Of a DNA stretch of 37,669 nucleotides, positions 6,400-37,203 are shown piece by piece (positions within the stretch are counted from its first letter, which is position 1; every line of letters starts with the position of its first letter). Under the pieces are notes generated by a model. The model saw only the letters and a program-made list of their open reading frames with translations. It did not search any database and was not told where the DNA came from. Source of the DNA: Nitrospirota bacterium (GTDB taxonomy: Bacteria > Nitrospirota > Nitrospiria > Nitrospirales > UBA8639). Position numbers and translations under genes: made by a program. Where the stretch lies: positions 1-37,669 of the forward strand of contig RFGT01000145.1 in NCBI GenBank assembly GCA_003696975.1, given 5' to 3'.

Positions 6400-6496
6400 A
6401 TGTTACCTCTTCTTGACAAGTCAGGGGGAACCAACAACAATATGGCATGGGAGATCTCCCCTAGCACAGACGATGCCAACGGCGTCTGTTACCAAA

Positions 6497-9676: not shown

Positions 9677-11124
9677 AAACACGGTCGGTATTGATCATTG
9701 ACGATGAGCCGCTGATGCGGTTGTCGATGGTGGATGCGCTGAGAGCCGTAGGGTATGAAGTTGAGGAAGCCTCGGCAGGCGACGAGGGGATCCACAAACT
9801 CCAGGGAAACCGATTTGATCTGATTATTACTGATTTGCGGCTACCCCGAAAGGACGGCATTCAGGTGGTTCAGGCGTGTAAGCAATACTCTCCGGGAACT
9901 GAAGTGATTGTGATTACGGCACACGGATCCGTGGATACCGCTGTGCAGGCCATGAAATTAGGCGCCCATGATTACATTACCAAGCCCTTTTCGATGGAAG
10001 AATTGCTCCTGATTGTTGATCGGGCGACCAAAGTGATTGCCCTGCGCCAGGAGAATGACGCATTGCGGCAAGAGCTGGAGGGGAAATTTTGTATCGACGG
10101 GTTCGTTGGGAAAAGTGCATGCATGCGGGAAGTGTTGGAAAAAGTTAAACTTGTCGCGGCGAGTGACGCCACGGTTTTGATCAGTGGAGAAAGCGGAACG
10201 GGAAAGGAAGTCGTAGCCAATGCGATTCATCGAAACAGTCCACGCCGAGATCAGGCTTTGATCAAAGTGAGTTGCGCGGCCCTGCCTGAAACGCTTCTAG
10301 AAGCCGAGCTCTTCGGCCATGAAAAGGGTGCGTTCACTGGTGCGCTAAAGCAACGCCGCGGGCGATTCGAGTTGGCGCATAAAGGCACCTTGTTCCTGGA
10401 TGAAATTGGGGACATTTCACCAGTAGTACAGGTCAAACTCCTACGAGTCCTACAAGAACGGCAGTTCGAACGAGTGGGTGGTAACGAAACGATCCACACA
10501 GATGTGCGCTTGGTATGCGCGACGCAAAAAGATCTCAAGAAAGCCGTAGAAGAAGGCCGCTTTCGGGAAGACTTGTACTACCGGTTGAATGTTGTGCCTG
10601 TACATCTTCCGCCTCTCCGGGACCGCAAAGAGGATATTTTACCTTTGGCTGAACATTTTCTTCACCTCAGTGCGCGGCGCGGGCAACGGACGGTAAAAGG
10701 GTTGAGTGCCCAGGCTCGGGAGATGCTGCTTCGCTATTCATTCCCTGGGAATGTCAGAGAGTTGGAGAACATCGTGGAGCGGGCTGTAGCGCTGGCTCAA
10801 CGTCACGACGAAATTCAAGTGTGGGATCTGTGTGGCCAAAGCAATTGCCCCTTTCTAGGAGGGACATGGCAAGAAAGTTGTGGATTCTGTCAAGAAGGAC
10901 TGGTCCCCAACCCGGGAACACGCCGCGAGCAGACAGCCACAACGCTGGCCCAAGCTCGTGAACACTTTGAGCGAGACTATATTCTCAGCATCTTGCATCA
11001 GACTGGCTGGAGTAAAACGCTGGCAGCCAAGGCGCTGGGATTGTCGCGCAAGGCTTTATGGGAGAAATGCAAACGATACGGTATCTCCACTGCCGAAGAA
11101 TCAGACGAAGAGGAGGGGGCCTGA
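9673..11124 (+). CDS. Sigma54-dependent response regulator (REC-AAA+-Fis HTH, NtrC family)
   Basis: REC domain (IDDEPLMRLSMV, ITDLRLPRKDGI, TKPF), AAA+ Walker A GESGTGKE, GAFTGA loop, ELFGHEKGAFTGA, R-finger region FPGNVRELEN, C-terminal Fis-type HTH; ATGA overlap with the kinase gene. Confidence 0.96.
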   Translation: MKTRSVLIIDDEPLMRLSMVDALRAVGYEVEEASAGDEGIHKLQGNRFDLIITDLRLPRKDGIQVVQACKQYSPGTEVIVITAHGSVDTAVQAMKLGAHDYITKPFSMEELLLIVDRATKVIALRQENDALRQELEGKFCIDGFVGKSACMREVLEKVKLVAASDATVLISGESGTGKEVVANAIHRNSPRRDQALIKVSCAALPETLLEAELFGHEKGAFTGALKQRRGRFELAHKGTLFLDEIGDISPVVQVKLLRVLQERQFERVGGNETIHTDVRLVCATQKDLKKAVEEGRFREDLYYRLNVVPVHLPPLRDRKEDILPLAEHFLHLSARRGQRTVKGLSAQAREMLLRYSFPGNVRELENIVERAVALAQRHDEIQVWDLCGQSNCPFLGGTWQESCGFCQEGLVPNPGTRREQTATTLAQAREHFERDYILSILHQTGWSKTLAAKALGLSRKALWEKCKRYGISTAEESDEEEGA

Positions 11125-11154: not shown

Positions 11155-12249
11155 CTAATCCTCACCTTCCCACAGTTTGATGGTCCGATCCCATGAAGCA
11201 CTGGCGAGATAGCGACCATCGGGTGAAAAGGCCACTCCTCGCACGGGTCCTGTGTGTCCCTTGATAGTACGAAATTGACGCCCTGTTTGGATATCCCACA
11301 TTTTCATTGTATGATCATCGCTGGCGCTGACCAGGATTTTCCCATCGGGAGAGACGGCAAGGCACCGAATCCACTCAGAATGTCCTTTCAGAGTGCGGAG
11401 TTCCTTCATGTCCGGCATGGAAAAATATTTAATAGTAGCGTCGCGACTAGCCGTGATCAGCAGAGATCCGTCTGGAGTGAATGTAATGGCGCCGATCCAA
11501 TATTCCATGGGCTTTTGAAATCCTCCATGATCGTCGACAAAATAGCCCCGCGCCTCGGTATCATCGTCGTCTGGTTCATCTCGCCAATGACCGTTGTGGA
11601 CGAGTTTTTCTTCACCGCTTGGTAAGACCTCATACAGTTTCAATTTGCCAATATCGCTCCCCCCTACTAAATGAATGCCGTCAGGGGAAAATGCCGTACA
11701 CACCATCCAATGATGATCGTACTGGTCTTTTCCCAGCAGAGTCATCAATTCCGTTCCAGTCGTGACCTCCCAGATTTTGATGTCTTTATTGTGACCGGCG
11801 CGGGCGAGCATCAATCCATCCGGAGAAAAGGAAATACTTGTAACAGCATGATCGTACCGTGTGAACAACAGGCGTGTGGTCTCCCCTGTAGAGGGATTCC
11901 ATAGGCGGATAGTCCGGTCATCTCCAGCGGAAGCCAGAAATTGGCCGTCAGGACTAAACGCCACCTGGCGGATGTCATGAGTGTGCCCGCGTAACGATTT
12001 TAGAAGCCGTCCAGTCTCAATATCCCAGATGCGGACGTAGCGGTCACTTCCGCCACTGGCAAGGGTAAGCCCATCGGGAGCATAGGCCACACTCCAAACG
12101 CCATGTGAATGCCCGCGAAAGGTTTTCACTTCATGGATACCTTTTTTCCAATATTGGAGGAGGTCAATAGGGGGTTGTTGGCTCGTCAGAGGAGGCTCAT
12201 CTGGCAAAGGCGACAGAATGTTTACTGCGGGAGATTGTACCTGATCCAT
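11155..12249 (-). CDS. WD40-repeat beta-propeller protein, apparently without signal peptide
   Basis: Repeated GHS..V.SVA.SPDG..LASAS.D.TI.LW units (about seven blades) across the ORF. Confidence 0.93.
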   Translation of the reverse strand: MDQVQSPAVNILSPLPDEPPLTSQQPPIDLLQYWKKGIHEVKTFRGHSHGVWSVAYAPDGLTLASGGSDRYVRIWDIETGRLLKSLRGHTHDIRQVAFSPDGQFLASAGDDRTIRLWNPSTGETTRLLFTRYDHAVTSISFSPDGLMLARAGHNKDIKIWEVTTGTELMTLLGKDQYDHHWMVCTAFSPDGIHLVGGSDIGKLKLYEVLPSGEEKLVHNGHWRDEPDDDDTEARGYFVDDHGGFQKPMEYWIGAITFTPDGSLLITASRDATIKYFSMPDMKELRTLKGHSEWIRCLAVSPDGKILVSASDDHTMKMWDIQTGRQFRTIKGHTGPVRGVAFSPDGRYLASASWDRTIKLWEGED

Positions 12250-12559
12250 CGTTCCTTTTCCCTCCTTCCCTAAAACATATTCGAATTGCTAAGAACAGAC
12301 CGACCGTGACCGTTCTGTAATGTGCTCACTCCTGTTGTGGCAGGTTACATGGAATCATCTCTGCTTGCCAAGCTAATAAATGAGCGACTATAATCACTCC
12401 TACTCGGTCTGATACTACTGGCCTGTGGAAGGTGACGTCAAGGTGAGAGAAGAAGTTGAAGAGCGGAGATGTCTGCTTGTCACCAAAAGACCGCAGAATG
12501 AGCGACAAGAGGTGCTCCGCCATCATACTCATCTCATAAGATAAGCCGAGAGGGACGTT

Positions 12560-13558
12560 ATGGAGATCCGATTTCAGCCAGCTCTCCTTCAGGAAGTTGT
12601 GGACTCGTTCGCTGAAAAAACCGAACGAGAAGGAGATCCTACTTACTATAACGAATTTCATGAGCTTGCGGATCCCATTTACGAACGCTTTTCGTTGGAT
12701 GAACGAGAACCGGAGTTCAAGAAGCTCTATCAGCATTTATTCGCCAAGTGGGGATTTGCCGATATCCTGCGGGATGCCTTCGATGAATATCCAGATCTCA
12801 AGGAGAAAGTGGGAATCGTCCTCGTTCGAGGGGTCCTGAAAGAGGATCAGGAAGGAGTTGATATTCTTCGTAAATGGGGGACCGTCGAGGAGAAGCTTGC
12901 CAAGCAATTCGAGGAAAAAGGCTTAAAAGGCGTTGGGATTAAGCTGATTCCTCGGCGGTTTTATGATCCCGCGATCACTCGCTATTTGCGCCACGAATTG
13001 ATGCATATTTCCGATATGTTGAATCCTGCATTTGCCTATGATCCTGATACCAAGGTCGGACTCAACCCTGGAGAAGAACACCTTATCTTGAATCGCTATC
13101 GGGTCTTATGGAGCCTTCATGTCGACAGCCGGATTGCACGGGCCGGGAAGGAGCCCATGTTTTCGAAGGAATATCGCTTGCGGGAGTTTCGATCCTGGTA
13201 CCGAAAGATCCCAGCTACGCAACTTGAATCGGTCTTTGAAGGATTGTGGCAGACCGACCATTTCACGCATGGTGAACTTGTCGAAATGGCTCAGGATACT
13301 CTTCGAGTCATGGAGCGAGCCGTTGAAGTTGAGGAAGGCGAGATTCCAGAGGTGCCGACCAAACCCCTGCTCATGCCTGGATTCCCTTGTCCGCTTTGCC
13401 GGTTTCCTACCTATTCGTGGGTGGAAGACTTGGAACACAAGGTGGAAAAGTACGTATTAGACTATATTCGAGAAAACCATCCTGGATGGGATGTGGAATA
13501 CGGCGCATGTGATCGGTGTATTGAGGTATACAAGTTGCGGGCTGCCGGTGTGGTGTGA
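12560..13558 (+). CDS. Conserved-looking protein with HExxH (zincin-type) motif and C-terminal Cys pairs; function unknown
   Basis: RYLRHELMHISDMLNP contains HELMH; C-terminus CPLCRFPTYSW...YGACDRC resembles a zinc ribbon; good coding continuity and a GAGGG ribosome-binding site upstream. Confidence 0.8.
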   Translation: MEIRFQPALLQEVVDSFAEKTEREGDPTYYNEFHELADPIYERFSLDEREPEFKKLYQHLFAKWGFADILRDAFDEYPDLKEKVGIVLVRGVLKEDQEGVDILRKWGTVEEKLAKQFEEKGLKGVGIKLIPRRFYDPAITRYLRHELMHISDMLNPAFAYDPDTKVGLNPGEEHLILNRYRVLWSLHVDSRIARAGKEPMFSKEYRLREFRSWYRKIPATQLESVFEGLWQTDHFTHGELVEMAQDTLRVMERAVEVEEGEIPEVPTKPLLMPGFPCPLCRFPTYSWVEDLEHKVEKYVLDYIRENHPGWDVEYGACDRCIEVYKLRAAGVV

Positions 13559-13653
13559 GGCAGAGAACACGAGAACTAGAGGGAACGGATTTGTGGGTAG
13601 AGGTAATGGAACCGTGATAGTTGGCGTGGAAAGAAGCTGAGGCGCGGAGATTG

Positions 13654-14298
13654 ATGAGCATGGCACCCAAGCGCTCGCAATCGCATTCTTCTGACCCATC
13701 CTACGGCCGTCGGAATTTTCTTAAGCACTCCGTGGTTTCCCTCGGAGTGGCGGTGCAGGAATATGTGAAGCACCGGGATGCCTCATTACCCAAGAAAACA
13801 CCAGACAGAAAGGCAGAGCGGACCGACTGGCTGCGTCCTCCTGGAGCAGTTGAGGAGGCGCTGTTTCTAGAACGCTGTACGGCATGTGGCGAGTGCCTCA
13901 AGGCTTGTCCTCATGGAACCATCATTTCCTCGGAAAAGGATGAGACTCCCATCGTTTTTCCTGATCGCACTCCTTGTTACCTGTGCGAAGATTTCCCTTG
14001 CGTAAGTGCCTGTGAGACCGATGCCCTGCAGCCACCTGCGCAGCCACGTGATGTCCGGATGGGAATTGCGGTAGTTTCCCATCGGATGTGTTCTGCGAGC
14101 CAGGGGTGCCATGCCTGTGTCCCGCAATGTCCGACTCAGGCGCTGGCATTGGATTTTTCGGCGTTTCGCATTCAGGTCCAGGAAGAACAATGCGTGGGAT
14201 GTGGTATCTGTGAGCATATCTGCAAGACGGTCAATGATCGTGTGGTCGCTATCCGCGTGGTGCCCGAACGTTCAAGGCGTTCGGCGGAGGCATGCTAA
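13654..14298 (+). CDS. Polyferredoxin, NapG/NapF-like, with four [4Fe-4S]-type Cys clusters and N-terminal Tat-like motif
   Basis: Four Cys clusters: CTACGECLKACP, CYLCEDFPCVSAC, CSASQGCHACVPQCP, CVGCGICEHIC; N-term SYGRRNFLKHSVVSLG. ORF opens at 13621; the ATG at 13654 (MSMAPKRS) was chosen as start. Confidence 0.87.
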   Translation: MSMAPKRSQSHSSDPSYGRRNFLKHSVVSLGVAVQEYVKHRDASLPKKTPDRKAERTDWLRPPGAVEEALFLERCTACGECLKACPHGTIISSEKDETPIVFPDRTPCYLCEDFPCVSACETDALQPPAQPRDVRMGIAVVSHRMCSASQGCHACVPQCPTQALALDFSAFRIQVQEEQCVGCGICEHICKTVNDRVVAIRVVPERSRRSAEAC

Positions 14299-14604
14299 AC
14301 AACGCTTGAGATTATCCAAGCCACACGCCACAAAAAGCATCATAGACGTCAGAAGAAATGAGGACTCCTCTGACCCCCAAAAGTGAGAGTAAAACAATAT
14401 CCAAAAATGATCGCAGCTGGTGAACTGTTGCGCGTAGAGAAATTTGGCTAACATCCGTTGAGAGAGAGTGAGGGGATATGAAAGACCTTGACTTCGAGAA
14501 AGAGTTGGCCTATGATCCCCTCCATCCTTGACAGAGCAGTGTAAGGGGCGTCAGGTTTGTAAGGATGGAGAGGTAGAGGGCTAGTCAAAAGGGAGAAGAA
14601 GTTT

Positions 14605-15576
14605 ATGGCGACCAAGATGAAGAAAGCACAAAACGGATCACAATCTGTCGCTACTCCTTCCGATGCTTCTGCACAAGCTCTTACTTCGCTCAAAGATTCT
14701 TCTGCTGTTGAGCGCGCTTTATCGCGTAGCAAGCTCTACTTATTATTGTCTTGGAGTTTTCTCTATCCGGAGGACGACGAATTTCTTGATTACCTCCAAA
14801 GCGGAGAATTCGTAGAAGATGGAAAAGCGGCACTGGCAAGTCTGCAGAAGTCGCTTGAAGGGCATGGTGGAGAAGAGGCATGGGAGCGGCTTCAAGCCAT
14901 AGAACAGCATTTCAATGCTGTGGAGAATTGGGTGTCGTCTGAAGGAATTAACTGGAATATTCAAGACTTGCGTGATGAACACCGCCGAGTTTTCAGTAAC
15001 GTTATTGCATTGGATTGTCCACCTTATGAAACCTTGTTCGGGAATGATCATGTATTTGGGCAGTCCTATGTGATGGGAGATATTTCAGGGTTTTATACGG
15101 CATTTGGTCTTCAGCTTTCTCAAGACATCCATGAACGGCTCGATCACCTCAGCGTAGAGCTTGAATTTTTGCATTTTCTGGCTTACAAGGAGTCCTACGC
15201 CTTATGTCATGACGGGCAGGATAAGCTACAGACAGTGATAGACGCAGAGAAAAAGTTTGTGAAAGAACATGTGGGTCGCTGGGTCCCGCTCTTTTCCGGC
15301 ATGCTGAAAAAGAAAGCGGAATATGGGTTCTATAAAATTCTTGCTGATCTGACCGCTGATTGGGTAGGTTTTGAGGTGGCCTATCTTCAAGTGTCACCCC
15401 AACCCTACTCAGAAACGGACTATCGGCCGGCAAATTTTATGTCTCCCGAGGGACAATCCTTTGAATGTGGTGCGCAAGATAAAGGAAACGAATTGAGCTT
15501 GTTGATGGATGAGGTAGGTGCGCAAGCCTATTTGGAGAAAGAGAAATCTGAGGACGGCCCTTCGGGGACGGCGTAA
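14605..15576 (+). CDS. TorD/NarJ-family chaperone for a molybdoenzyme
   Basis: SKLYLLLSWSFLYPEDDEFLDYL, DCPPYETLFG, DISGFYTAFGLQLSQDIHERLDHLSVELEFLHFLAYKE, characteristic of TorD/DMSO reductase-type chaperones. Confidence 0.9.
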   Translation: MATKMKKAQNGSQSVATPSDASAQALTSLKDSSAVERALSRSKLYLLLSWSFLYPEDDEFLDYLQSGEFVEDGKAALASLQKSLEGHGGEEAWERLQAIEQHFNAVENWVSSEGINWNIQDLRDEHRRVFSNVIALDCPPYETLFGNDHVFGQSYVMGDISGFYTAFGLQLSQDIHERLDHLSVELEFLHFLAYKESYALCHDGQDKLQTVIDAEKKFVKEHVGRWVPLFSGMLKKKAEYGFYKILADLTADWVGFEVAYLQVSPQPYSETDYRPANFMSPEGQSFECGAQDKGNELSLLMDEVGAQAYLEKEKSEDGPSGTA

Positions 15577-15591
15577 TTTACTCAGTAATTT

Positions 15592-15654
15592 GTAAGGTAG
15601 TTTGTTCGCAGTCTAGTTTATTATTTTTGAGGGTAAGGCTGTTAGTTCGCAGTC
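15592..15654 (+). repeat. Pair of imperfect direct repeats upstream of the NxrC-like gene
   Basis: GTAAGGTAGTTTGTTCGCAGTC (15592-15613) and GTAAGGCTGTTAGTTCGCAGTC (15633-15654); 3 mismatches in 22, 41 bp start to start. Confidence 0.75.
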
Positions 15655-15695
15655 ATTTTTTGGATTAATCTTTTACCAAAGGAGGATGCGTCATT

Positions 15696-16649
15696 ATGAG
15701 AGTGGTGCAGACGCGTAACAAAGGACTGGTGTTCGGCATTCTTCTCTCTGCCCTCGTGATAGGCGTGTTATTGACAGTTGGGCAGGTGCCTCTCGCAGTC
15801 AGCCAGCCGGTGACTATTCCGGTTGGTACTATCAAGGGGCCAATTCCCATGGATGGAGCAAATCCCGTTTGGGAAACCGTCCCGGGGATTATTGTTCCTC
15901 TCAGCGGACAAACTATAACTACCCCCATGCATCCTAACATCTCCGTGAAAACGGTCATGATAAAGATGGCCACGAATGGGAAGGAGATTGCGGTATGGGC
16001 TAACTGGGGGGATCAGACACTCAATAACACAGTAATTGGTCCTCAAGATTTTCGCGACCAAATGGCTGTACAGTGGCCAGTGAACACCTCAGGACCACCT
16101 CCATTCCAATGCATGGGACAATCTGGAGGGACAGTTAATATTTGGCGTTGGAATGCTGAATGGCAAAAGGACTTGGGCGCCGGGGTTGCCGGGATGTGGG
16201 ATGTAGATCAACAATATCCTTCTATTGCCTGGGATTTCTATTATGAAGAACCAGCCGGTGGCGTCACCTATCCGGATCGTATTGGTCGGAGCCTTGGCCC
16301 GTTCAATCCTGGAATCTGGTCGGGAAATATCCTCTCAGATCCGAATCTACGGAAGAGTTCTGTGGAAGATCTCAATGCAAATGGGTTTAGCACGCTCACA
16401 ACCCAAGCCTCACAAGACGTGCTAGGAAATGGGTTGTGGGAACCGTATGGCGCCTTAAAAGGTGGCTGCTGCAGCGGACCGACCTGGCGTGTTGTCTTTA
16501 AGCGAACCCTGACGACTAATGATCCTAATGATGTACAATTCCGTTCAGGGATGAGTGTTCCAGTCGCTTTTGCCGTGTGGGATGGCCAAAATATGGAACG
16601 TAATGGAATGAAAGGGATCTCTACTTGGTTTACGGCAAAGCTTCCCTGA
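15696..16649 (+). CDS. Exported heme-b subunit of a type II DMSO-reductase-family enzyme (NxrC/EbdC/ClrC-like)
   Basis: Signal-like N-terminus; PFQCMGQSGGTVNIWRWNAEWQKD and AVWDGQNMERNGMKGISTWF are typical of the ethylbenzene-dehydrogenase heme-binding family, with the expected Met and Lys axial ligand positions. Confidence 0.9.
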   Translation: MRVVQTRNKGLVFGILLSALVIGVLLTVGQVPLAVSQPVTIPVGTIKGPIPMDGANPVWETVPGIIVPLSGQTITTPMHPNISVKTVMIKMATNGKEIAVWANWGDQTLNNTVIGPQDFRDQMAVQWPVNTSGPPPFQCMGQSGGTVNIWRWNAEWQKDLGAGVAGMWDVDQQYPSIAWDFYYEEPAGGVTYPDRIGRSLGPFNPGIWSGNILSDPNLRKSSVEDLNANGFSTLTTQASQDVLGNGLWEPYGALKGGCCSGPTWRVVFKRTLTTNDPNDVQFRSGMSVPVAFAVWDGQNMERNGMKGISTWFTAKLP

Positions 16650-16765
16650 TCGGGGATAAAAATTTGGCACTAACTCTATTAGTTTAGGTTGTGCCATTTG
16701 TGTGAGGGGACGATTCAGCGAAATTCCCCTCTGGCAGTGAAGCCGGTAAAAATCTGAAGCAGAAG

Positions 16766-16825
16766 AAAGCCCTGGCGTTGCCCTATCTCATTTTTAAGGG
16801 GACGCCAGGGTTTTCTTATTTTTTC
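16766..16825 (+). terminator. Rho-independent terminator
   Basis: Perfect 9-bp stem CCCTGGCGT (16770-16778) / ACGCCAGGG (16802-16810) followed by TTTTCTTATTTTTTC. Confidence 0.9.
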
Positions 16826-16940
16826 ACACAAGCAGATCAAGGCCTTTGGGGAAACAAAAATAGCCCTACCGGAAATAGCAAGCCCTCTCTGAGATCAGTT
16901 TCACTGGAAGATTGAAGGCTATGCCCGTTTAGAGAAACAG

Positions 16941-17032
16941 TCAACCAGATACAAGGTGTCTGCGAAAACGGTTCAACCAGATTAACGACCAAAAGCCTAT
17001 GGTGCAGATATAACGACCAAAAGCCTAGGGTG
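16941..17032 (+). repeat. Two interleaved families of direct repeats upstream of the radical SAM gene
   Basis: TCAACCAGAT at 16941-16950 and 16973-16982; TAACGACCAAAAGCCTATGGTG (16983-17004) and TAACGACCAAAAGCCTAGGGTG (17011-17032), the latter pair differing at one base. Confidence 0.8.
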
Positions 17033-17200
17033 AAGTGTTTGAAGTAAATCAAGCAAGTTAACTGAGAGATGAGAAAGGTTGCATTCAAGCGTGGAGCCCG
17101 TGTATAAGGAGAATGTGTTTTGTAAGGATACGGAGTAGAGGATTTTTTGTTAAAAGAAAATTAGGAAACTCGATTGGCTTAGAGAGCAGAGGGAGTCAGC

Positions 17201-18976
17201 GTGAAACTGGTCTTGCTTTTCCCGCCAAGTTGGCATCCTTCGCAACCGTATTTGAGTCTTCCCTGTCTCACGGCTTTCCTTGACCAAGCGGGAATTACTC
17301 AAAAAATCCAACGAGACTTAAACATTGAGCTCTTAGATGTGATGCTCTCCAAATCTTATGGGCTGGAAGTTTACGAACAACTTCGAGAGAAGTTGCGAGA
17401 TCTGGAGCGAGCGAGAAGAGGAGAAATAGGACCACGAAGTCATGAGCACTACGGCCGTGTTGTTGAGGCACTGGACCGGGTTCCGCAATTGATTGATGAA
17501 ATCGAATCGGCGAAGGCTTCGTTGCGAAGTGATGAATTCTATGATCTTGATCGGTATCGAGAATGCCTCTTCTTGATTGACCGCTGGTTGGAAGTGATCT
17601 CTTCCTTGTATTTCCCAACCCGCATTACGGTTGTTGATAATCAGTTGAACTATTCCATTTATTCATCACGCGATATCTTGAAAGCGGTCACCGATGAAGA
17701 ACAAAACCCATATATTGACTTGTACCGACGGTATTTTCTTCCCTCTTTGTGGAGTGAGGCACCTGACCTTGTGGGGGTATCCATTACAGCCACCTCTCAG
17801 ATTATTCCGGGTCTGACGTTATGTCGGCTTCTTAAATCGGCCAATCCTGATCTGCATGTTACGATTGGAGGAAGCATTTTTACTAGGTTGGTTGACAACT
17901 TACGTCGCTGCGAACGGCTCTTTCAGCTCGCAGATGATTTTGTGGTCTTTGAAGGAGAAACCGCTCTACTGGAATTAGTGAATCAACTGGAAGGAGCAAG
18001 AAATTTCGCCAAAGTTCCAAACTTAATTTACCGTCAGAATGGCCGAGTTGTCGTGAACCAGCCATTTTATTCAGAAAATTTAGCACATCATCCTCCACCG
18101 AATTATGACGGATTCCCCTTAAGAAAATATCTCGCGCCTGAAACTGTCTTGCCCGTTCAATTTTCTCGCGGGTGTTACTATAAAGACTGCGCGTTTTGTG
18201 CGCTGACCTTGGATCATCAGAATTTCAGGCAGAAGGATCCAGTCAAGGTGGTGGATGAGTTGCAATTTCTGGCTGCGAAATATCATACACCGTTCTTCTT
18301 TTTTACCGATGAATGTCTTGCGCTTTCGCCCACACGCCGGTTGTGTAAGGAGATTTTATCTCGGCAATTCGAGATTCAATGGACAGCAGAATTGCGGTTC
18401 GAAAAGAATCTGTCGCGAGAACTCTTAACGCTGATGCGAGATGCCGGCTGTCAGAAGATCGTGTTTGGGTTGGAAACGTATAACAAGCGAATGATGGAAT
18501 TCATGAAGAAAGGGATCACGCAAGAAAGCGTCCAACGCATTTGCTCGGATTGTGTGGATCTTGGGATTGCCGTGCATTGCTACATTATTGTGGGGTTCCC
18601 CACAGAGACGGAAGAAGAAGCCCTTGAAACCATGAATTTTATTCTCAACAATACTAAGCTGAATTCGTCCTATGGATTTTCCTGCCAACCCTGCCTGTTT
18701 GATTTGGAAAAAGAAGCTCCGATCATGAGTGACCCTGGTGCCTATGGTATTCGACGAATCATGCGCCCGGCGTCAGAGGATCTAAGCCTGGGTTTCTTTT
18801 ACGAAGTGCAGCATGGCATGACACCTGAACAGGCAGAGAAGCTTTATCAGTATGTCTACGAGAAAATTAGTGAAGTTGTGTGTGAATTGCCATTCAATTA
18901 TTCGATGGCTGATGGGTTGCTCTATATTGCCCGGCATAACAAACAACATGCCCCTGCATATTCGTCTGCTGTCTAA
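17201..18976 (+). CDS. B12-binding-type radical SAM protein
   Basis: RDLN-type N-terminal segment, VGVSITATSQIIPGLTLCRLLK...VTIGGSIF Rossmann-like cobalamin fold region, FSRGCYYKDCAFCAL Fe-S motif, FTDECLAL and IVGFPTETEEEALETMNF motifs. GTG start with upstream AGAGGGAG. Confidence 0.9.
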   Translation: MKLVLLFPPSWHPSQPYLSLPCLTAFLDQAGITQKIQRDLNIELLDVMLSKSYGLEVYEQLREKLRDLERARRGEIGPRSHEHYGRVVEALDRVPQLIDEIESAKASLRSDEFYDLDRYRECLFLIDRWLEVISSLYFPTRITVVDNQLNYSIYSSRDILKAVTDEEQNPYIDLYRRYFLPSLWSEAPDLVGVSITATSQIIPGLTLCRLLKSANPDLHVTIGGSIFTRLVDNLRRCERLFQLADDFVVFEGETALLELVNQLEGARNFAKVPNLIYRQNGRVVVNQPFYSENLAHHPPPNYDGFPLRKYLAPETVLPVQFSRGCYYKDCAFCALTLDHQNFRQKDPVKVVDELQFLAAKYHTPFFFFTDECLALSPTRRLCKEILSRQFEIQWTAELRFEKNLSRELLTLMRDAGCQKIVFGLETYNKRMMEFMKKGITQESVQRICSDCVDLGIAVHCYIIVGFPTETEEEALETMNFILNNTKLNSSYGFSCQPCLFDLEKEAPIMSDPGAYGIRRIMRPASEDLSLGFFYEVQHGMTPEQAEKLYQYVYEKISEVVCELPFNYSMADGLLYIARHNKQHAPAYSSAV

Positions 18977-19066
18977 GAAGGTGAAGGGAAAGGCTAGCCC
19001 AACCCAACGCAGGGAAGTCGAGGTGCCTTTAAGAGGGTATGACCGGATGGTGAGAGGATGTGAGCG

Positions 19067-20209
19067 ATGATGAGAAGCCAGGTTCTGAGCGCCCATATTG
19101 CCCGAGAGCACACAGCGTCTTCTACAGATCCTGGATTGCTTTTTGAGTATAGTCTCAAGGGGGTCATGTTGGCCGGCTTTTTGGAGCTTGTGCTCTATCG
19201 GTTGATTTCTCGACTAGGTATGCATTTCTCCAAACTGACTGAAAATTCCGAAGCTATACGGTTGACTTTTAAGACTCTGGCCTCTGTTGGATTTCTCCTG
19301 TTAAACCTTACTTCTCTGTTACTATTTCTCATGATAGGTCTCATGCTCATTCACAAACTTCGGCAAACCGCTTGGACGAGCCGGTTCGATCCATGGACGA
19401 TTCCGGCGCTCTCGCTGCTTGTGCTCATCACAGTGGTTTACCTCATTTTTCCCCCCGCTATGCTAGGATCGGTGGTCTACAACGTCATAGCATTTGTGGT
19501 GTTTTCGATCTTGGTGATAGAGTATATGGTGGTTCACCGACAGTGGAGCCAGCGCCTCATGGTTGGGTGCTTTTTCCTCGGAATTTGTGGGTGGCTGTAT
19601 TATCAGACCATGTCGACGAGTTATGGTCTGCTCGGTATCGTGACCCCACCACCCCTGGTGCACGAATTCAATCGTCTCGGTGAAGCACTTATGGTGGTAG
19701 CCAGCATTTTAGTGTTTTGGGCCTATGGGACGACTTCGTTCTTTACAAGAAATAAAATACAACGCCGTCGTGCCGTGATTTTTGCCATGAGTGGGGGGAG
19801 TATCTTTATCCTGCTCCTTTTCCTCGATTACTTTTTGTCGTTGTATAGTCCACAGGTAGCCGAGTCGGTAAGAAAAGCCGGGCAGGGGATTGGATGGATT
19901 TTTCAAATGGGGATGGGGTATACCTTTTACCTTCCATTTGCTCTGTATGTGACAGGGTTACTGTGTTGGGGGTATACCGTCGTCAAACTCATTCTTATCG
20001 GACGATTGGCTGGTTATGGATTGGGATTGATGTTTATTGCCGGGTACGCTCTTCAGCTCTCACATCTCACTCTTATGGTAGCCGCGGGATTAATGTTGCT
20101 CACACTGGATAAGCGGGGAACGCTGGGGAAACTGCGGGAGCGAGGGCACGTGCAGGAAGGTGCCGTGCTCGCTTCAGCCACCCCGGCAATGGGAAGTGCC
20201 GGGCAATAG
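19067..20209 (+). CDS. Polytopic inner-membrane protein, function unknown
   Basis: ORF with roughly 8-10 hydrophobic helices; co-oriented and closely spaced with neighbours. Confidence 0.8.
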   Translation: MMRSQVLSAHIAREHTASSTDPGLLFEYSLKGVMLAGFLELVLYRLISRLGMHFSKLTENSEAIRLTFKTLASVGFLLLNLTSLLLFLMIGLMLIHKLRQTAWTSRFDPWTIPALSLLVLITVVYLIFPPAMLGSVVYNVIAFVVFSILVIEYMVVHRQWSQRLMVGCFFLGICGWLYYQTMSTSYGLLGIVTPPPLVHEFNRLGEALMVVASILVFWAYGTTSFFTRNKIQRRRAVIFAMSGGSIFILLLFLDYFLSLYSPQVAESVRKAGQGIGWIFQMGMGYTFYLPFALYVTGLLCWGYTVVKLILIGRLAGYGLGLMFIAGYALQLSHLTLMVAAGLMLLTLDKRGTLGKLRERGHVQEGAVLASATPAMGSAGQ

Positions 20210-20240
20210 TGTCATAACACAGTGGGGTAGATGGAGTGGT

Positions 20241-21056
20241 ATGGAACAACAAACTAATACACCATCGCAAGAATCAAGGCCTGAAGCGTCAGGAACAGAA
20301 GAACGGCAGTTGACCCCGGATGAGGAAATTGCCGAGCTGGAAAAGTTGTTGGCTCAAGAGCCGGATGATTTTCAAGCGCGCTGTCGGCTGGGGGAGTTGT
20401 ACTTTGGCAAAGGCCGTCTCGATGACGCATTGGTTGAAGTGAAAAAGGCCATTGAAATGGCCGAAGGGTTGCGGACGGAGATGGATCGCTCCCTCGCCAT
20501 GTATTATTCCAATCTTGGAACCATTTATGGAACCAAGGGAATGATGGATGATGCCCGTCCCCAATTTGAACGGGCATTGGAATTAAACCCCTTTGATGTC
20601 TTGGCTCTTTTCAACCTTGGTCGGCTGTATACGGAAAAGAAAGAGTACATGAAGGCAAAGGAATATTTTGAACGGCTTATCGAGGTTACACCTGAGGACC
20701 CTATTGCATGGTATAATCTGGCAGGAGTCTATGAGCAATTGGACAATCCTCAGGTGTCTGACTACAACACATTGGATATGGCCATGCAGGCCTATATGAA
20801 GGTCTTGGAGTTTGATCCATCGCATTTAGAATCGAGTTTCAAGCTGATGGATATGGCCTTTACTCTGAAGAAGCCTGAGATGGCCATCAAAGTTATGGAG
20901 GATGCCGTTGAGCACAATCCTGACGAGCCCTTGGCCTATTACAATTTGATTAGTGCCTACGAGAAGTGCAAGATGTTTGAGCAAGCCGAAGAAACTCGAC
21001 AGCGACTGAAACAGCGATTTGCTAAACGGACCCGTGAGACAAGTAAGACACAGTAG
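20241..21056 (+). CDS. TPR-repeat protein
   Basis: Repeated A..YF.R.LE..P.D..A..NLG..Y pattern; start taken at MEQQTNTP (20241), as the 20160 start overlaps the preceding gene. Confidence 0.88.
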   Translation: MEQQTNTPSQESRPEASGTEERQLTPDEEIAELEKLLAQEPDDFQARCRLGELYFGKGRLDDALVEVKKAIEMAEGLRTEMDRSLAMYYSNLGTIYGTKGMMDDARPQFERALELNPFDVLALFNLGRLYTEKKEYMKAKEYFERLIEVTPEDPIAWYNLAGVYEQLDNPQVSDYNTLDMAMQAYMKVLEFDPSHLESSFKLMDMAFTLKKPEMAIKVMEDAVEHNPDEPLAYYNLISAYEKCKMFEQAEETRQRLKQRFAKRTRETSKTQ

Positions 21057-21087
21057 GAAATAGGTCACTTTGTAAGGAGACATTCTT

Positions 21088-21432
21088 ATGTTTGGAACAT
21101 TTGGCTTCACAGAGCTGGTGTTGATTCTGGTAATTGTGTTGATCATCTTTGGGGCCGGGAAGCTTCCGCAATTGGGAGAAGGGCTGGGAAAGGCTATCAA
21201 GGGTTTCAAGAAATCCGTTCAGGAAGCAGACGCGATCGAGGCGGAAGCGCAGACCATGGCGGCACAGCAAGCGGCTTCCACGAGCTATGCAACTCAGGCT
21301 CCTGGTGGATCTGGTTATGCCCAACAGGGGGCAGGTCCCCAGGCGTCAGTTGAACAAGCTGCGCCCCCAACAGAATCGGCCTCTACACCAGTGTCGGCGC
21401 CGGAGCAAGCTCAACCCTCAAAAGCAGTGTAG
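21088..21432 (+). CDS. tatA: Sec-independent protein translocase TatA
   Basis: [43 protein letters not shown]; typical TM plus amphipathic helix, then Ala/Gln/Pro-rich tail. Confidence 0.93.
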
Positions 21433-21525
21433 CGGAACGTGGTCGAGCAGATCAGCTTTGGTACAGAGGTCTCATCTGAAGGAGCGGATTATTATCCTTA
21501 TCCAAAGTGAGGTGAGTAGAAGGGT

Positions 21526-22779
21526 ATGGAGACCAGTGTAGCCACAGCAGTTGGGAGAATTGAGACCTTTGCAGGTAATGGAAAGTCGCGGAGTACAGGA
21601 GACGGGAAACGCGCCATCAAAGCGGGAATCCCGCTTCCTAACCAGATTTGTTTGGATAAAGAAGAACGCTGGTTGTATGTCGCAGAAAATGGATCTGATC
21701 GAGTACGTCGTATTGATCTTGCAGCAGGGACGATCCATAACTATGCGGGTATCGGAGAAACCTGTTATAGCGGTGACGAGGGGCCCTGTGGGGAAGCCGG
21801 GTTATATTTACCATTGGACGTGGCGGTGGATTCGCACAATGATTTATATATTTGCGATTCAGGCAGCAACCGCATCCGAAAAGTGGACCACAAAACAGGG
21901 ATCATCACCACTGTCGTCGGGACTGGCCAGTGGGGGTATAACGGAGATGGCCCTGCGCTAGAGACCAATCTGACGTTTCCCGGGGCAATCGCTTTTGATC
22001 ACAACGATATTCTCTATATTGCTGACACGCAAGCCCATCGGATTCGAAAATACGACCCGCGGACGGGTATGGTGACGACGATCGCCGGAACCTGGACGAA
22101 AGAAGATGAAGATTGGGTGAGCCCCTTAACGGCTCAGAATCTCGTTGTGCTTTCTGGCGACGCCATTGGCATCGATTTTACCGATGATCATGGCTGGCTG
22201 CGGCCTCAGTGCTCTGACGGGCTTGACCTTACGCCGTATCTGGATGATGGACGTCCCGCGCTAGAGGCCAAATTGTGGGACATCGTCGATATTGCTGTTG
22301 ACAAAGCGGGGAATCTTTACTTGGTCGACAAAGGCAGCAATCGGATTCGCAAGATTGATATCCAGACAGGGATCATTTCCACGGTGGCTGGAGTCTGTCG
22401 GTATGGGTATGATGGGGATAACAAGCCTGCGATCAAAGCTATGTTGAATGTCCCTGAGGGGGTCATTTTGGATGACGACGGCAACTTGTATATTGCTGAT
22501 TCCATGAATCATCGCGTCCGGAGAGTTGATGCCAAGACGGGACTTATTACCACGATCGCCGGAAATGGCGACAGCGGATACGAAGACAAACATATGGGAG
22601 GATGCGGAGCCGCTCGGTTTGTCGCCAAGGAAGAAACGGGGATGCTGAAGCACGGGGATGGACTTCCAGCCGTGGAGGCCGTTGTCAATGCCCCGTCTGG
22701 CTTAGCGCTTGACTCCCAAGGGTACCTCTATATCTGTGAACGCAACGAAAATAAAATTCGCCGTGTGAAATTATGGTGA
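21526..22779 (+). CDS. NHL-repeat beta-propeller protein
   Basis: Repeated LYI.DS.N.RIRK.D..TG.ITT.AG.G..GY.GDG..A......P.G.A.D blades; no obvious signal peptide. Confidence 0.92.
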   Translation: METSVATAVGRIETFAGNGKSRSTGDGKRAIKAGIPLPNQICLDKEERWLYVAENGSDRVRRIDLAAGTIHNYAGIGETCYSGDEGPCGEAGLYLPLDVAVDSHNDLYICDSGSNRIRKVDHKTGIITTVVGTGQWGYNGDGPALETNLTFPGAIAFDHNDILYIADTQAHRIRKYDPRTGMVTTIAGTWTKEDEDWVSPLTAQNLVVLSGDAIGIDFTDDHGWLRPQCSDGLDLTPYLDDGRPALEAKLWDIVDIAVDKAGNLYLVDKGSNRIRKIDIQTGIISTVAGVCRYGYDGDNKPAIKAMLNVPEGVILDDDGNLYIADSMNHRVRRVDAKTGLITTIAGNGDSGYEDKHMGGCGAARFVAKEETGMLKHGDGLPAVEAVVNAPSGLALDSQGYLYICERNENKIRRVKLW

Positions 22780-22894
22780 TAGCTCCTCTGATTGCGAAGC
22801 GGAACCAGAGCAAGGCACGGGGAGAAAACGGTGATGCAAATCAGGCTTCTGGTGTGGGAAACTGTGCAATTCTTCCCGTGAGAGATAGAACTTA

Positions 22895-23743
22895 ATGCGA
22901 GTGGCACGTTGGAACCGCACAATCATTCTCCTCAGCTTAAGCCTCGGTGTCTGTGCCATATTTGGTTGGTTGAGCATTCCGCTCGTCAGTTCGCAAGGTA
23001 TTATCATTCGCTCTCACTATCTGCCCGGCGATATCCCCGCTCATCCTTCTGATCCTGCATGGGAGCAAATTGCCCCTATTGCCGTGCCATTAAGCGGCCA
23101 AATTATTACCCGGCCTGTATGGCCTGAGCCTAGTGTGAAAGTGCTGTCAGTCCGCTCCGTGCACAATGGCAAAGAGATCGCATTTCTCTTAGAATGGCAG
23201 GACGCCACACGCAATGAACGCTTGACTCCCGGGGTATTTCGAGATGGGGTGGCCATTGCATTTCCTTTGGGCGATGCACCGGCGTTCTTTTGCATGGGCC
23301 AATTGGATCATTATGTCAATATCTGGCATTGGAAAGCAGATTGGCAAAGCGATGTGGACCGTCGAGCAGCCAGAGCAAAAGAGCGAAAGCGAAAGCGGCG
23401 AGGTATTCGGCGATTTGAGGTCATTCCGCGGCGGCCTTCGTCAGTGGAAGATCTCCTCGGCGGAGGGTTCAGTACGTTGACCAGCAAAAAAACCCAAGGG
23501 CGAATTCAGGGGCAGGCAGAATGGAAGCGCGGATTTTGGCGCGTGGTCATGAGACGGCCGCTCAGCGATCCCAAGACCTATCGCGAGAATGAGGCCATTC
23601 TCCTGCCAGGTCGCATGCAAGCCATTGCCTTTGCTGTCTGGAATGGAGAGAACAAAGAACGCAATGGTCAGAAAGCCGTGGCTTCATGGTTGCAGCTTCA
23701 GATTGACCCCATTGACGAATCACCTGCACCAGAAAAGACATGA
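22895..23743 (+). CDS. Second exported ethylbenzene-dehydrogenase-type heme-b subunit (NxrC-like paralogue)
   Basis: Signal-like N-terminus; FFCMGQLDHYVNIWHWKADWQSDV, SVEDLLGGGFSTLTSK, AVWNGENKERNGQKAVASWL align by eye with the 15696-16649 product. Confidence 0.87.
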   Translation: MRVARWNRTIILLSLSLGVCAIFGWLSIPLVSSQGIIIRSHYLPGDIPAHPSDPAWEQIAPIAVPLSGQIITRPVWPEPSVKVLSVRSVHNGKEIAFLLEWQDATRNERLTPGVFRDGVAIAFPLGDAPAFFCMGQLDHYVNIWHWKADWQSDVDRRAARAKERKRKRRGIRRFEVIPRRPSSVEDLLGGGFSTLTSKKTQGRIQGQAEWKRGFWRVVMRRPLSDPKTYRENEAILLPGRMQAIAFAVWNGENKERNGQKAVASWLQLQIDPIDESPAPEKT

Positions 23744-23770
23744 AAATGAGCCGAAAGGGGGTGAGCGGAT

Positions 23771-24271
23771 ATGGAACAGACACGAACATATCTGGACAGG
23801 AGACTCCGCGGGGTCCGGTTGCAAGATTATCTTCGCCTCATCTGTAGAGGGTTGGTCCCATGTCTCCTCCTCTTAGGGATGAGCTTGCAGGAGGTCCTTG
23901 TATGGGCGAGTGCCCAGAATGGCGAAATGACGGAAGAGAAAGCCCTGCAGTTGGCTGAGGAATTTGGTATCGACGTGGGAGAAGTCGATGAAGAGATCAA
24001 AGAGTATCTTGGTCTGCCGAGGGCGGAAGGGGTGGTTGTTTTTGCAGTGATAGGAGGGACACCGGCGGAACGAGCAGGAATTAAGGTCAAAGCGATTATT
24101 AAGGAAGTGGATGGAAAAGAGATTAAGACGCTCATTGACCTGGGAAAAGCTCTTGAAAAGGCCATGCCTACGGAAAATTTCTCTGTGGCCACGTTTGAAC
24201 CTGCAGACCCCAATAACCAAGGAGTGACGGGAGGCCTGAACTTTCACTTTGTTCGTGTGGAAAAAGACTAA
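23771..24271 (+). CDS. PDZ-domain protein, probably exported or membrane-anchored
   Basis: Hydrophobic N-terminal segment; PDZ-like GVVVFAVIGGTPAERAGIKVKAIIKEVDGKEIKTLIDLGKALEK. Confidence 0.82.
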   Translation: MEQTRTYLDRRLRGVRLQDYLRLICRGLVPCLLLLGMSLQEVLVWASAQNGEMTEEKALQLAEEFGIDVGEVDEEIKEYLGLPRAEGVVVFAVIGGTPAERAGIKVKAIIKEVDGKEIKTLIDLGKALEKAMPTENFSVATFEPADPNNQGVTGGLNFHFVRVEKD

Positions 24272-24306
24272 CGGTCCCACACACATGATCAGTTGATGAG
24301 AGTATC

Positions 24307-25650
24307 GTGACGCGAGTGGCAGGACGACGGGGAAAAAGACTTATTGCAGGGCTCTTAGTGCTGGGGCTTGTTGGGTGGTGGGGGAGTCCGATGGAGTGGG
24401 CTCTTGTGCTCGCTCAATCTTCCTCTCCCGCTGCCAATGAAGAGTGGATTCAGGAAATCGAAGAGATTTTTGTTCCTTCTGAGCAGTGCAAGCAATGTCA
24501 CGATCGTCACTATGAAGAATGGAAAGGGATGCGCGAACAAACACCTGACCTGAAAACATTTGGTCGGGTTGACGGTGCACTGCTCCATGGCACAGCGCTG
24601 ACCTCGCCGGTATTTCGCACGGTCTTAGGATTGTGGCTTCAAACGAAGCCCACGTCGGAAGAGCGGACCCGCTGCCTTTCCTGCCATGTTCCAGCGGTAA
24701 CAGTGTTCCCCCAATACACAGATCGGATTATTGAGCAGGTTATGGCAGGGCGGCGGAAAGTGAAGGTGGAGGGGATTGGCTGTTCGGCTTGCCATCTGAT
24801 CAACGACATTCAGAAAGACGGAGCGACCCACCCTTCATTTAAGATTCATCCAGGAAAGACCTTTTTCGGGCCCTATGCCGAACCTGAAGAAAATCTTGTG
24901 CATCCTTCTGCACAGGCGGCAGTCTATCGAGGAGCTTACTATTGTACTTCCTGTCACTTCAGTAAAGTAAAGGATGTTACGAGACCAGATATTCCCGGGG
25001 AAATCTTTAAAGGGACCATTTGCCAAGACTGTCACATGGAACAATCCACCGGCAGTTCCACCTCCAAGCGTGGAGCCTTGACCCGACCGATCGGACGACA
25101 TTGGTTTCAAGGTATTGTGATCCCGGGAATCATGTTGAGTAATCGCAATCTTCAGGCTGAGTGGTTCTCCCGAGTTGACCTTGAGGTACAACAACACGAA
25201 GAGGGGACGCTTGCGGGGAACGTGGTGATTCGCAATGGCAGTTTGCCCCACATGTTTCCTGGCGGCGATCCCGTGTTGAAACACTTTTTTGTTACCGTTA
25301 CGGTGAAAGATACCAGTGGCCGCGTTATCGACACCCAGGAGCGACAGTTCGGACTGCCGTTTGAAAAGATTCTGCGTGGTCCCATTCCACAGCCCTTGGT
25401 GAACGGTGGTGTGACACGGCGCGTGCCGTTCACGTTTAAGATTCCGGATGATCGGAACCCGTGGCTTTTGGAGGCCACACTGTCCTACGCGCTCATTCCC
25501 AAACCTAGTGATGAGCTTCTGGAGGCCTATCTGGCCACGCTGTCACAGGAGCGGGAGAAGCAGGCAGCTCGTAAGATTATCGACGATTACGCCGCGCCGC
25601 GGCTTCTGACGTTTCGCACCAAGACATTACAACACTCATCCATGAACTGA
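24307..25650 (+). CDS. Exported pentaheme cytochrome c (cytochrome c554-like N-part, beta-rich C-part)
   Basis: Five CXXCH motifs: CKQCH, CLSCH, CSACH, CTSCH, CQDCH; signal-like N-terminus; GTG start. Confidence 0.9.
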   Translation: MTRVAGRRGKRLIAGLLVLGLVGWWGSPMEWALVLAQSSSPAANEEWIQEIEEIFVPSEQCKQCHDRHYEEWKGMREQTPDLKTFGRVDGALLHGTALTSPVFRTVLGLWLQTKPTSEERTRCLSCHVPAVTVFPQYTDRIIEQVMAGRRKVKVEGIGCSACHLINDIQKDGATHPSFKIHPGKTFFGPYAEPEENLVHPSAQAAVYRGAYYCTSCHFSKVKDVTRPDIPGEIFKGTICQDCHMEQSTGSSTSKRGALTRPIGRHWFQGIVIPGIMLSNRNLQAEWFSRVDLEVQQHEEGTLAGNVVIRNGSLPHMFPGGDPVLKHFFVTVTVKDTSGRVIDTQERQFGLPFEKILRGPIPQPLVNGGVTRRVPFTFKIPDDRNPWLLEATLSYALIPKPSDELLEAYLATLSQEREKQAARKIIDDYAAPRLLTFRTKTLQHSSMN

Positions 25651-25680
25651 GCGACACCAACGATCCGTGTAGAGGTCGGC

Positions 25681-26919
25681 ATGATTCGGAGATGGTTGCT
25701 TAGAGGGGGAATACTGGTTAGCCTCATGGTGCTTGGGGGAGCACAAACCCTGTTCCTGGCGTCTAACCTCAACACAGCAGAAGCGAAAGAGAGCGTGAAG
25801 AAGCTGTTGAATAAAGCCTTTCCGCATTCACAGAAATGTAAGCGCTGTCACCTTCGCGTGTTTGAGGAATGGGAGGCGTCTGCGCAGTCTCGATCCATTC
25901 AAACTGCGCCCTTTCGGGTATCGCTTGATCGGTTTCTGGCGTCCGCTCCCAAGAACCATCAAGCCATGTGTTTTCGGTGCCATGCGCCACATATTCTTGA
26001 GTATCCCGAGCAGACCTCCTTCTTTATCAAAGAGGTTCAATCACGTGATCCCCAAATTGATGGCGTAGGCTGTGCCCAATGTCATCTTATCAAAGAAGTC
26101 GATGAAACCGTCCATCCGCCCCTCCCTACCTTTGCCTTGGGGAACACCGTATTTGGGAGCTACAAAAATGCGGTGGATAATCTGGCACACAAATCCCAAG
26201 CATTGGAACTCTATCGAACTTCAAACTATTGCGTGAGTTGTCACGAAATCTTACCCGCCATCGGGCAGAATACATCTCTCCCTGACTTGTTGGGAGCCTG
26301 GAAAAAGACAAGCGCTGAAAAGGAGGGGAAACGTTGTCAGACCTGCCATATGCCGGAAGCATTTGGCGAATCCGCCAACGGTGAGCGAAACCGCAAGATT
26401 GCGAATCATAGCTTCCCCGGTCGGTTCGGCAAAGTTCGTGCCAAGGCCGCCAAACTCGATGTGAAGACCACCGTCAACGGCGACCAATCAACCGTACAGA
26501 TCACTATACAGAGTTTAGTCCCGCATAACCTCCCGCTGCCACATCCGGGATGGTCGAGAATTGTCTTGGATTTGACCATTCTGGGGAAAAATCTCCGCAA
26601 GGTCTACGGAGAGCAGCGAACATACGAACGAGTCTTTGCCGATGCCAAAGGACGCCCAACGGTCTTTGATTTCGAGGCGGTTAAAGTTTTGAAGGATACC
26701 GTACTCAAACCAGAGGAAACCCGGGTAGAAACCTTTACCTTCCCCACGCCTAAAGATGCTCCGTCCATGGACGTGATCGTGACTCTAACCTATGGAGCCA
26801 TTCATGGTCCCGAGGAATTTGTGAAAGCCGTCGAAGCCCAAGCCACCCTTGGGCGTAAGGATCGGGCGTTTCGGCCTGTTGAGATCGTCAAATTTAAGGA
26901 GAATATTCCGCTCCGATAG
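25681..26919 (+). CDS. Exported pentaheme cytochrome c, paralogue of the upstream gene
   Basis: Five CXXCH motifs: CKRCH, CFRCH, CAQCH, CVSCH, CQTCH; same motif order and C-terminal domain type as the 24307-25650 product. Confidence 0.9.
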   Translation: MIRRWLLRGGILVSLMVLGGAQTLFLASNLNTAEAKESVKKLLNKAFPHSQKCKRCHLRVFEEWEASAQSRSIQTAPFRVSLDRFLASAPKNHQAMCFRCHAPHILEYPEQTSFFIKEVQSRDPQIDGVGCAQCHLIKEVDETVHPPLPTFALGNTVFGSYKNAVDNLAHKSQALELYRTSNYCVSCHEILPAIGQNTSLPDLLGAWKKTSAEKEGKRCQTCHMPEAFGESANGERNRKIANHSFPGRFGKVRAKAAKLDVKTTVNGDQSTVQITIQSLVPHNLPLPHPGWSRIVLDLTILGKNLRKVYGEQRTYERVFADAKGRPTVFDFEAVKVLKDTVLKPEETRVETFTFPTPKDAPSMDVIVTLTYGAIHGPEEFVKAVEAQATLGRKDRAFRPVEIVKFKENIPLR

Positions 26920-37161: not shown

Positions 37162-37203
37162 CGTTCTCACCTCAAGGAGCAAAAACCACTAAATGAGTCT
37201 TCC

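What the first reader, a model, noticed from the sequence alone, without database searches (positions are those of the whole stretch)
12560..26919. 14-kb respiratory accessory block with maturation and electron-transfer parts but no catalytic molybdopterin subunit
Seen: a co-oriented run encoding a TorD-type chaperone, a four-cluster polyferredoxin with a Tat-like motif, two NxrC/EbdC-type heme-b subunits, TatA, two pentaheme cytochromes c, a radical SAM protein, a membrane protein, TPR, NHL, PDZ and an HExxH protein. Known: type II DMSO-reductase-family enzymes (nitrite oxidoreductase, chlorate and selenate reductases, ethylbenzene dehydrogenase) normally pair the gamma subunit and chaperone with alpha (Mo-bis-MGD) and beta (Fe-S) subunits. 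No alpha or beta ORF is present here. Inference: this is the assembly and electron-handling half of a periplasmic enzyme such as Nitrospira NXR, with alpha/beta elsewhere, or a distinct complex in which the heme-b subunits and cytochromes act without a Mo subunit.
Basis: partly seen in the sequence, partly recalled or inferred. Interest (0 to 1): 0.75.

Follow-up and report, generated by a model that had tools for sequence, protein, structure and literature searches.

The report
Nitrospira NXR accessory gene cluster
This is the known cluster of helper and electron-carrier genes that nitrite-oxidizing Nitrospira bacteria keep apart from the two catalytic genes of nitrite oxidoreductase; the missing catalytic gene was found truncated on another contig of the same genome, and two of the unexplained helper genes turn out to sit beside the catalytic beta-subunit gene in a distant relative.

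Summary
The block is real: 13 co-oriented genes at 12560-26919, in the same order in 20 relatives from three families of the order (one of them rearranged). It is not a Mo-free complex. It is the NxrC/TorD cluster of Nitrospirales, already published as NITMOv2_3614-3631 (PMC12342949; PMC6606698). Published work also states that Nitrospira keep nxrC away from nxrAB, so the missing alpha and beta genes are expected. In this genome nxrA exists: residues 1-52 lie at the cut end of contig C29, beside the usual nxrAB neighbours. The HExxH gene is in 97 of 99 NXR-family genomes sampled and absent from the NXR-negative sister family. gam1 and gam2 match solved NxrC best, and both heme-b ligands are invariant. 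New here: (1) outside the class, genome G071 encodes nxrB-torD-nxrC-HExxH, with the ferredoxin gene on the apparently adjoining contig, which links HExxH and the ferredoxin to NXR. (2) The block is probably three transcription units, with TorD-NxrC set off by a conserved promoter and terminator. (3) The distance from block to nxrAB ranges from about 11 kb to hundreds of kb. The roles of HExxH, the B12/radical SAM protein, the membrane protein, NHL, TPR and PDZ remain inferred.

The parts
12560..13558 (+). HExxH protein, 332 aa, no known family; cytoplasmic by appearance; invariant HExxHxxD and C-terminal CxxC...CxxC (possible Zn sites); proposed NXR assembly factor
   Evidence: present in NXR-bearing families only; linked to nxrB-torD-nxrC in G071
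13621..14298 (+). NapG/MauM-like polyferredoxin, four Cys clusters, Tat-like GRRNFLKH motif
   Evidence: a shorter Tat-like ferredoxin gene follows HExxH in G071
12365..12394 (+). sigma-70-like promoter TTGCCA-18-TATAAT upstream of HExxH, score >=10 of 12 in 16 of 19 relatives
14488..14516 (+). sigma-70-like promoter TTGACT-17-TATGAT upstream of TorD, score >=10 of 12 in 17 of 20 loci (0-3 at the other genes apart from HExxH)
14605..15576 (+). TorD/NarJ-type chaperone (probable NxrA maturase)
   Evidence: 38% identical homologue next to nxrB in G071 (40)
15696..16649 (+). gam1: NxrC-type heme-b subunit, 34.4 kDa, ligands Met140 and Lys306; counterpart of N. moscoviensis nxrC_2 by position and mass
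   Evidence: Met155C/Lys305C of Kuenenia NXR
16763..16817 (+). intrinsic terminator after gam1 (dG -33.4, T-rich tail); strong hairpin at this place in 21 of 21 loci
17201..18976 (+). B12-binding radical SAM protein, 591 aa
19067..20209 (+). polytopic membrane protein, 380 aa, no known family or fold match
20160..21056 (+). TPR protein
21088..21432 (+). TatA/TatE-type translocase subunit
21526..22779 (+). NHL beta-propeller protein
22895..23743 (+). gam2: second NxrC-type heme-b subunit, 32.0 kDa, ligands Met134 and Lys260; counterpart of nxrC_1 by position
23771..24271 (+). PDZ-domain protein
24307..25650 (+). pentaheme cytochrome c 1
25681..26919 (+). pentaheme cytochrome c 2 (ExtKL/MccSep-like)
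6413..11124 (+). PAS histidine kinase and NtrC-type regulator, conserved directly upstream; a two-component system is named as part of the published cluster
11155..12249 (-). WD40 protein, conserved divergent neighbour in every locus long enough to show it

Best explanation
The block is the Nitrospirales nitrite oxidoreductase (NXR) accessory cluster. TorD binds and loads the Tat-exported, Mo-containing NxrA (inferred from family). NxrC (gam1) is exported on its own and takes electrons from the NxrB Fe-S chain through a Met/Lys-ligated heme b (ligands shown; transfer inferred from Kuenenia NXR). gam2 and the two pentaheme cytochromes act as further or alternative periplasmic electron carriers (inferred). 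HExxH and the polyferredoxin are NXR assembly factors, perhaps for Fe-S or metal insertion or quality control (link to NXR shown by gene linkage and distribution; biochemical role inferred). The B12/radical SAM, membrane, TPR, TatA, NHL and PDZ genes form a Nitrospirales-specific module for export or modification (inferred). Transcription is probably in three units, HExxH-ferredoxin, TorD-NxrC, and radical SAM to cytochrome 2, which would let NxrC be made in amounts matching NxrAB from a distant locus.
For: NxrA N-terminus elsewhere in this genome. Identical order in three families. HExxH in 97 of 99 NXR-family genomes sampled, 0 of 4 in the NXR-negative sister family, 1 of 197 in the rest of the phylum; that one, G071, carries nxrB-torD-nxrC-HExxH on one contig (36, 40, 41) with composition typical of its genome. 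Best solved relative of both gammas is NXR subunit C, with ligands aligned. Conserved promoter before TorD and terminator after gam1. Papers: nxrC_2 transcribed at 20,365 RPKM, like nxrAB, against 354 for nxrC_1; TorD adjacent to nxrC_2; the cluster is listed as diagnostic of nitrite-oxidizing Nitrospirales.
Against: No biochemistry for any gene except by homology. TIGR03477 and TIGR03482 matches are below curated cut-offs. rSAM has no ortholog in G071 (best 115 bits against about 1,200), so nothing ties genes 17201-26919 to NXR outside Nitrospirales. nxrB itself was not seen in this MAG. Nitrospinota and anammox genomes could not be searched here.
Confidence: 0.88

Rival explanations
1. The heme-b subunits and cytochromes form a distinct respiratory complex that works without a Mo subunit.
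For: No alpha or beta gene in the window; the rSAM of the second half has no ortholog in G071; nxrC_1 is expressed far below nxrAB in N. moscoviensis.
Against: nxrA is present in the same genome; the block's marker gene is absent from the sister family that lacks NxrA; gam1 is NxrC-like with conserved ligands and its homologue sits next to nxrB-torD in G071.
Confidence: 0.05
2. Split function: HExxH-ferredoxin-TorD-NxrC (12560-16649) serves NXR, while rSAM to cyt2 (17201-26919) is a separate periplasmic electron-transfer or redox-stress module held nearby by shared regulation.
For: Only homologues of the first four genes are linked to nxrB in G071; a strong conserved terminator separates the halves; nxrC_2 and nxrC_1 differ about 58-fold in transcription.
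Against: The order of both halves is kept across three families, and the published gene set treats the whole cluster as specific to nitrite oxidizers.
Confidence: 0.3
3. The lineage has lost NXR, and the block is a relic or has been re-used.
For: No nxrB found in the 95%-complete MAG.
Against: NxrA residues 1-52 with an intact Tat signal are cut only by the contig end, beside the usual nxrAB neighbours; the same contig-end or gap pattern appears in other genomes; assembly trouble with multi-copy nxr is published.
Confidence: 0.03

Closest known systems
N. moscoviensis cluster NITMOv2_3614-3631 (PMC12342949, PMC6606698)
   Same: NxrC, TorD, two pentaheme cytochromes, unknown proteins and a two-component system; nxrC_2 next to torD; the second nxrC lies several genes away; separate from nxrAB.
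   Different: Matched by order, content and mass only; the N. moscoviensis record itself was not fetched. The paper's main text gives no operon structure or functions for the unknown genes.
Kuenenia stuttgartiensis NXR-ABC (7B04) and its gene cluster
   Same: gam1 and gam2 match chain C best; Met/Lys heme ligands; TorD-like chaperone reported in that cluster (PMC3578206).
   Different: In Kuenenia alpha, beta and gamma are close together (kustd1700-1704, PMC8387239); the rSAM, HExxH, NHL and membrane genes are not mentioned in the passages read.
Ethylbenzene dehydrogenase / type II DMSO reductase gamma subunits and their chaperone
   Same: EB_dh domain, heme-b ligands, dedicated TorD-type chaperone.
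   Different: Much weaker match than to NxrC (7e-14 against 1e-37 for gam1); normally encoded together with alpha and beta.

Membership tests
NXR gamma subunit (NxrC) | EB_dh / type II heme-b domain | tested here: met
   PF09459 over cut-off for both; the stricter TIGR03477 cut-off is not reached (129 and 151 against 169.85) but is reached by the G071 homologue
NXR gamma subunit (NxrC) | Met and Lys axial heme ligands | tested here: met
   gam1 M140/K306 and gam2 M134/K260 are invariant and align with M155/K305 of 7B04 chain C
NXR gamma subunit (NxrC) | closer to NxrC than to other type II gammas | tested here: met
   1.4e-37 and 2.3e-31 to NXR-C against 6.7e-14 and 2.6e-17 to EbDH gamma
NXR gamma subunit (NxrC) | physical complex with NxrA and NxrB | not testable with these tools
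   needs biochemistry
Nitrospirales NXR accessory cluster | gene content and order conserved in nitrite-oxidizing Nitrospirales | tested here: met
   20 relatives, three families; further loci
Nitrospirales NXR accessory cluster | marker genes absent from NXR-negative relatives | tested here: met
   HExxH 0 of 4 and NxrA 0 of 4 in family f4; HExxH 1 of 197 elsewhere in the phylum, and that one has NxrB
Ordinary nxrABC operon | alpha and beta adjacent to gamma | tested here: not met
   none in the window; nearest seen in the order is about 11 kb away in f3 genomes
TorD/NarJ chaperone | Nitrate_red_del domain | tested here: met
   PF02613 63.6 bits against 22.2; TIGR03482 80.7, below its cut-off of 152.3
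NapG ferredoxin | NapG/MauM curated cut-offs | tested here: not met
   108.7 against 269 and 87.8 against 178.85: NapG-like, not NapG

The most novel reading that the evidence does not exclude
The HExxH protein and its Tat-like polyferredoxin are a dedicated, previously unassigned NXR maturation pair, ancestral to periplasmic NXR operons in Nitrospirota, to which Nitrospirales added a B12/radical-SAM module that covalently modifies an NXR component.
Probability: 0.2. Interest if true: 0.65.

Novelty: already known. Interest (0 to 1): 0.35.

Why it matters
NXR makes nearly all biological nitrate, yet how its periplasmic form is assembled and passes electrons on in Nitrospira is unsettled. The cluster itself is published. 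The G071 linkage turns two 'proteins of unknown function' (HExxH and ferredoxin) into specific, testable NXR maturation candidates, and the promoter/terminator layout suggests why the two NxrC genes of one cluster are expressed so differently.

Tried and rejected
Mo-free complex: rejected because nxrA is in the genome. A closed-looking genome (G233) with HExxH but no NxrB seemed to decouple block and enzyme; it is a scaffold with N gaps, and its nxrA copies are truncated there. G071 contigs as misbinned: GC and tetranucleotides match the rest of that genome, though a binning error cannot be excluded. Structure prediction of HExxH was poor (pLDDT 59) and of the membrane protein fair; neither gave a significant fold match. 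Looking for Nitrospina gracilis through a published primer hit only Acidithiobacillus by chance, so Nitrospinota and anammox genomes were not searched. HExxH in plasmids: none.

Full report
What is there. The window is the whole of contig C234 (37,669 bp) of a 95%-complete, 273-contig MAG. A WD40 gene (-) and a histidine kinase/NtrC pair lie upstream; ilvD (-) lies downstream.

Is it conserved? Yes. tblastn of every window protein on 20 relatives from three families of the order gave the same order, WD40-HExxH-ferredoxin-TorD-gam1-rSAM-MP-TPR-TatA-NHL-gam2-PDZ-cyt1-cyt2, wherever the contig was long enough; one genome, G009, has the run broken within NHL. Median identities are 57-87%; gam1 (87%) and HExxH (84%) are the most conserved. 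None of the nxrAB loci first examined (20 regions from seven genomes) contains block genes.

Where are alpha and beta? The TIGR models found no NXR-type alpha or beta in this MAG. A true Nitrospira NxrA query found residues 1-52 at 98% identity, with an intact SRRQFLK Tat signal, running off the end of contig C29. The next genes on C29 (a lipoprotein with BNR-like repeats, a second conserved protein, an ABC transporter) are the upstream neighbours of nxrA in up to six relatives. So nxrA is present and its locus is broken by assembly. The same happens widely: 14 of 15 Nitrospirales genomes with no or only residual NxrB still have nxrA sequence, nearly always cut at contig ends. A one-contig genome (G233) that seemed to keep the block without NXR contains N gaps in the stretches where its nxrA copies stop. 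The literature states both points: nxrC lies apart from nxrAB in Nitrospira (PMC6606698), and multi-copy nxr complicates assembly (PMC12342949). In f3 genomes nxrAB lies about 11 kb from the end of the block (G174, G089); in closed Nitrospiraceae it is hundreds of kb away.

Does the block track NXR? In an even draw of 296 Nitrospirota genomes, HExxH occurs in 97 of 99 members of the three NXR-bearing families and in 1 of the other 197. The two exceptions, G208 and G287, are fragmented assemblies; G287 keeps the rSAM ortholog. The sister family f4 has neither HExxH (0 of 4) nor NxrA (0 of 4). The one outside hit, G071, is of another class. Its 3-kb contig C41 reads nxrB (71% identical, cut) - torD (38%) - nxrC (42% to gam1, 33% to gam2) - HExxH (cut). 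Contig C53 begins with the rest of HExxH, overlapping by 47 bases with one mismatch, followed by a short Tat-like ferredoxin gene and an Mrp-type Fe-S carrier gene. Both contigs have the composition of that genome. None of its three sampled class-mates has HExxH, so transfer is likely and misbinning cannot be fully excluded. The radical SAM of the block has no ortholog there. I did not see this linkage in the papers read.

What the gammas are. Profiles of gam1 and gam2 hit Kuenenia NXR subunit C best (1.4e-37 and 2.3e-31) and ethylbenzene dehydrogenase gamma second. The heme ligands Met155C and Lys305C (PMC8387239) align with the invariant M140/K306 of gam1 and M134/K260 of gam2. By position, mass and neighbour, gam1 corresponds to nxrC_2 of N. 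moscoviensis (34.2 kDa, 20,365 RPKM, next to TorD) and gam2 to nxrC_1 (30.8 kDa, 354 RPKM).

Transcription units. A hairpin with a T-rich tail follows gam1 in 21 of 21 loci (dG -27 to -44, median -31; medians at the other twelve genes -6 to -16). A promoter-like TTGACT/A-17-TATNNT precedes TorD: 17 of 20 loci score at least 10 of 12, against 0-3 at other genes, except HExxH, which has its own in 16 of 19. This suggests HExxH-ferredoxin, TorD-NxrC and rSAM-to-cyt2 as separate units, and it fits the published 58-fold difference between the two nxrC genes. These are consensus matches, not measured ends.

Mechanism. Shown: conserved order, co-distribution with NXR, heme ligands, heme counts, linkage in G071. 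Inferred: TorD matures NxrA; NxrC takes electrons from NxrB; HExxH and the ferredoxin assist assembly; gam2 and the pentaheme proteins carry electrons; rSAM modifies something. I put 0.88 on the block serving NXR, and keep 0.3 on the refinement that the second half is a separate module. That refinement overlaps with the main explanation, so the two figures are not meant to sum to one.

Comparison and novelty. PMC12342949 lists the cluster NITMOv2_3614-3631 with the same content as diagnostic for nitrite-oxidizing Nitrospirales, so the finding is already known. What is added here is the own-genome nxrA fragment, the G071 linkage, the transcription-unit layout and the range of block-to-nxrAB distances.

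Noticed in passing
L119:2-3053 and L118:2-2712 (G071 C41, C53): nxrB-torD-nxrC-HExxH on one small contig, apparently continuing into a short Tat-like ferredoxin gene and an Mrp-type Fe-S carrier gene, in a Nitrospirota genome outside the class.
   Followed up: yes
33597-34748 (-): RuBisCO-like protein (PF00016; nearest the MtnW enolase models but far below their cut-offs).
   Followed up: no
25681-26919: Cytochrome 2 resembles the ExtKL multiheme (seleno)protein family (99 bits) and solved MccSep; whether a Cys replaces the Sec was not checked.
   Followed up: no
L122:4920-12285 (G000 C207): Third EB_dh gamma with a C-terminal membrane helix, beside heme-c proteins and what look like cytochrome b/bd-type membrane genes; resembles the published alt_nxrC setting.
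   Followed up: partly
L091 (G005 C75): A different type II DMSO-reductase beta (best TIGR03478 match of all relatives) with an adjacent, distant gamma; possibly another Mo enzyme.
   Followed up: no
G233:C1:3587629-3591289: Tandem pair of radical SAM paralogues of the block's rSAM (about 365-410 bits), also in G208 and G287, outside the block.
   Followed up: no
L066 and L090 (G009 C1): The block is split about 95 kb apart within NHL, with NHL sequence on both sides; rearrangement or assembly error.
   Followed up: no
G233:C1 (L150, L152, L153-L155): A single-contig genome record contains 100-N gaps that hide nxrAB and misplace half of the block; absence calls from such records are unsafe.
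   Followed up: yes
35404-37182 (-): ABC-class ATPase (PF09818/PF20446/PF21117), full length.
   Followed up: no
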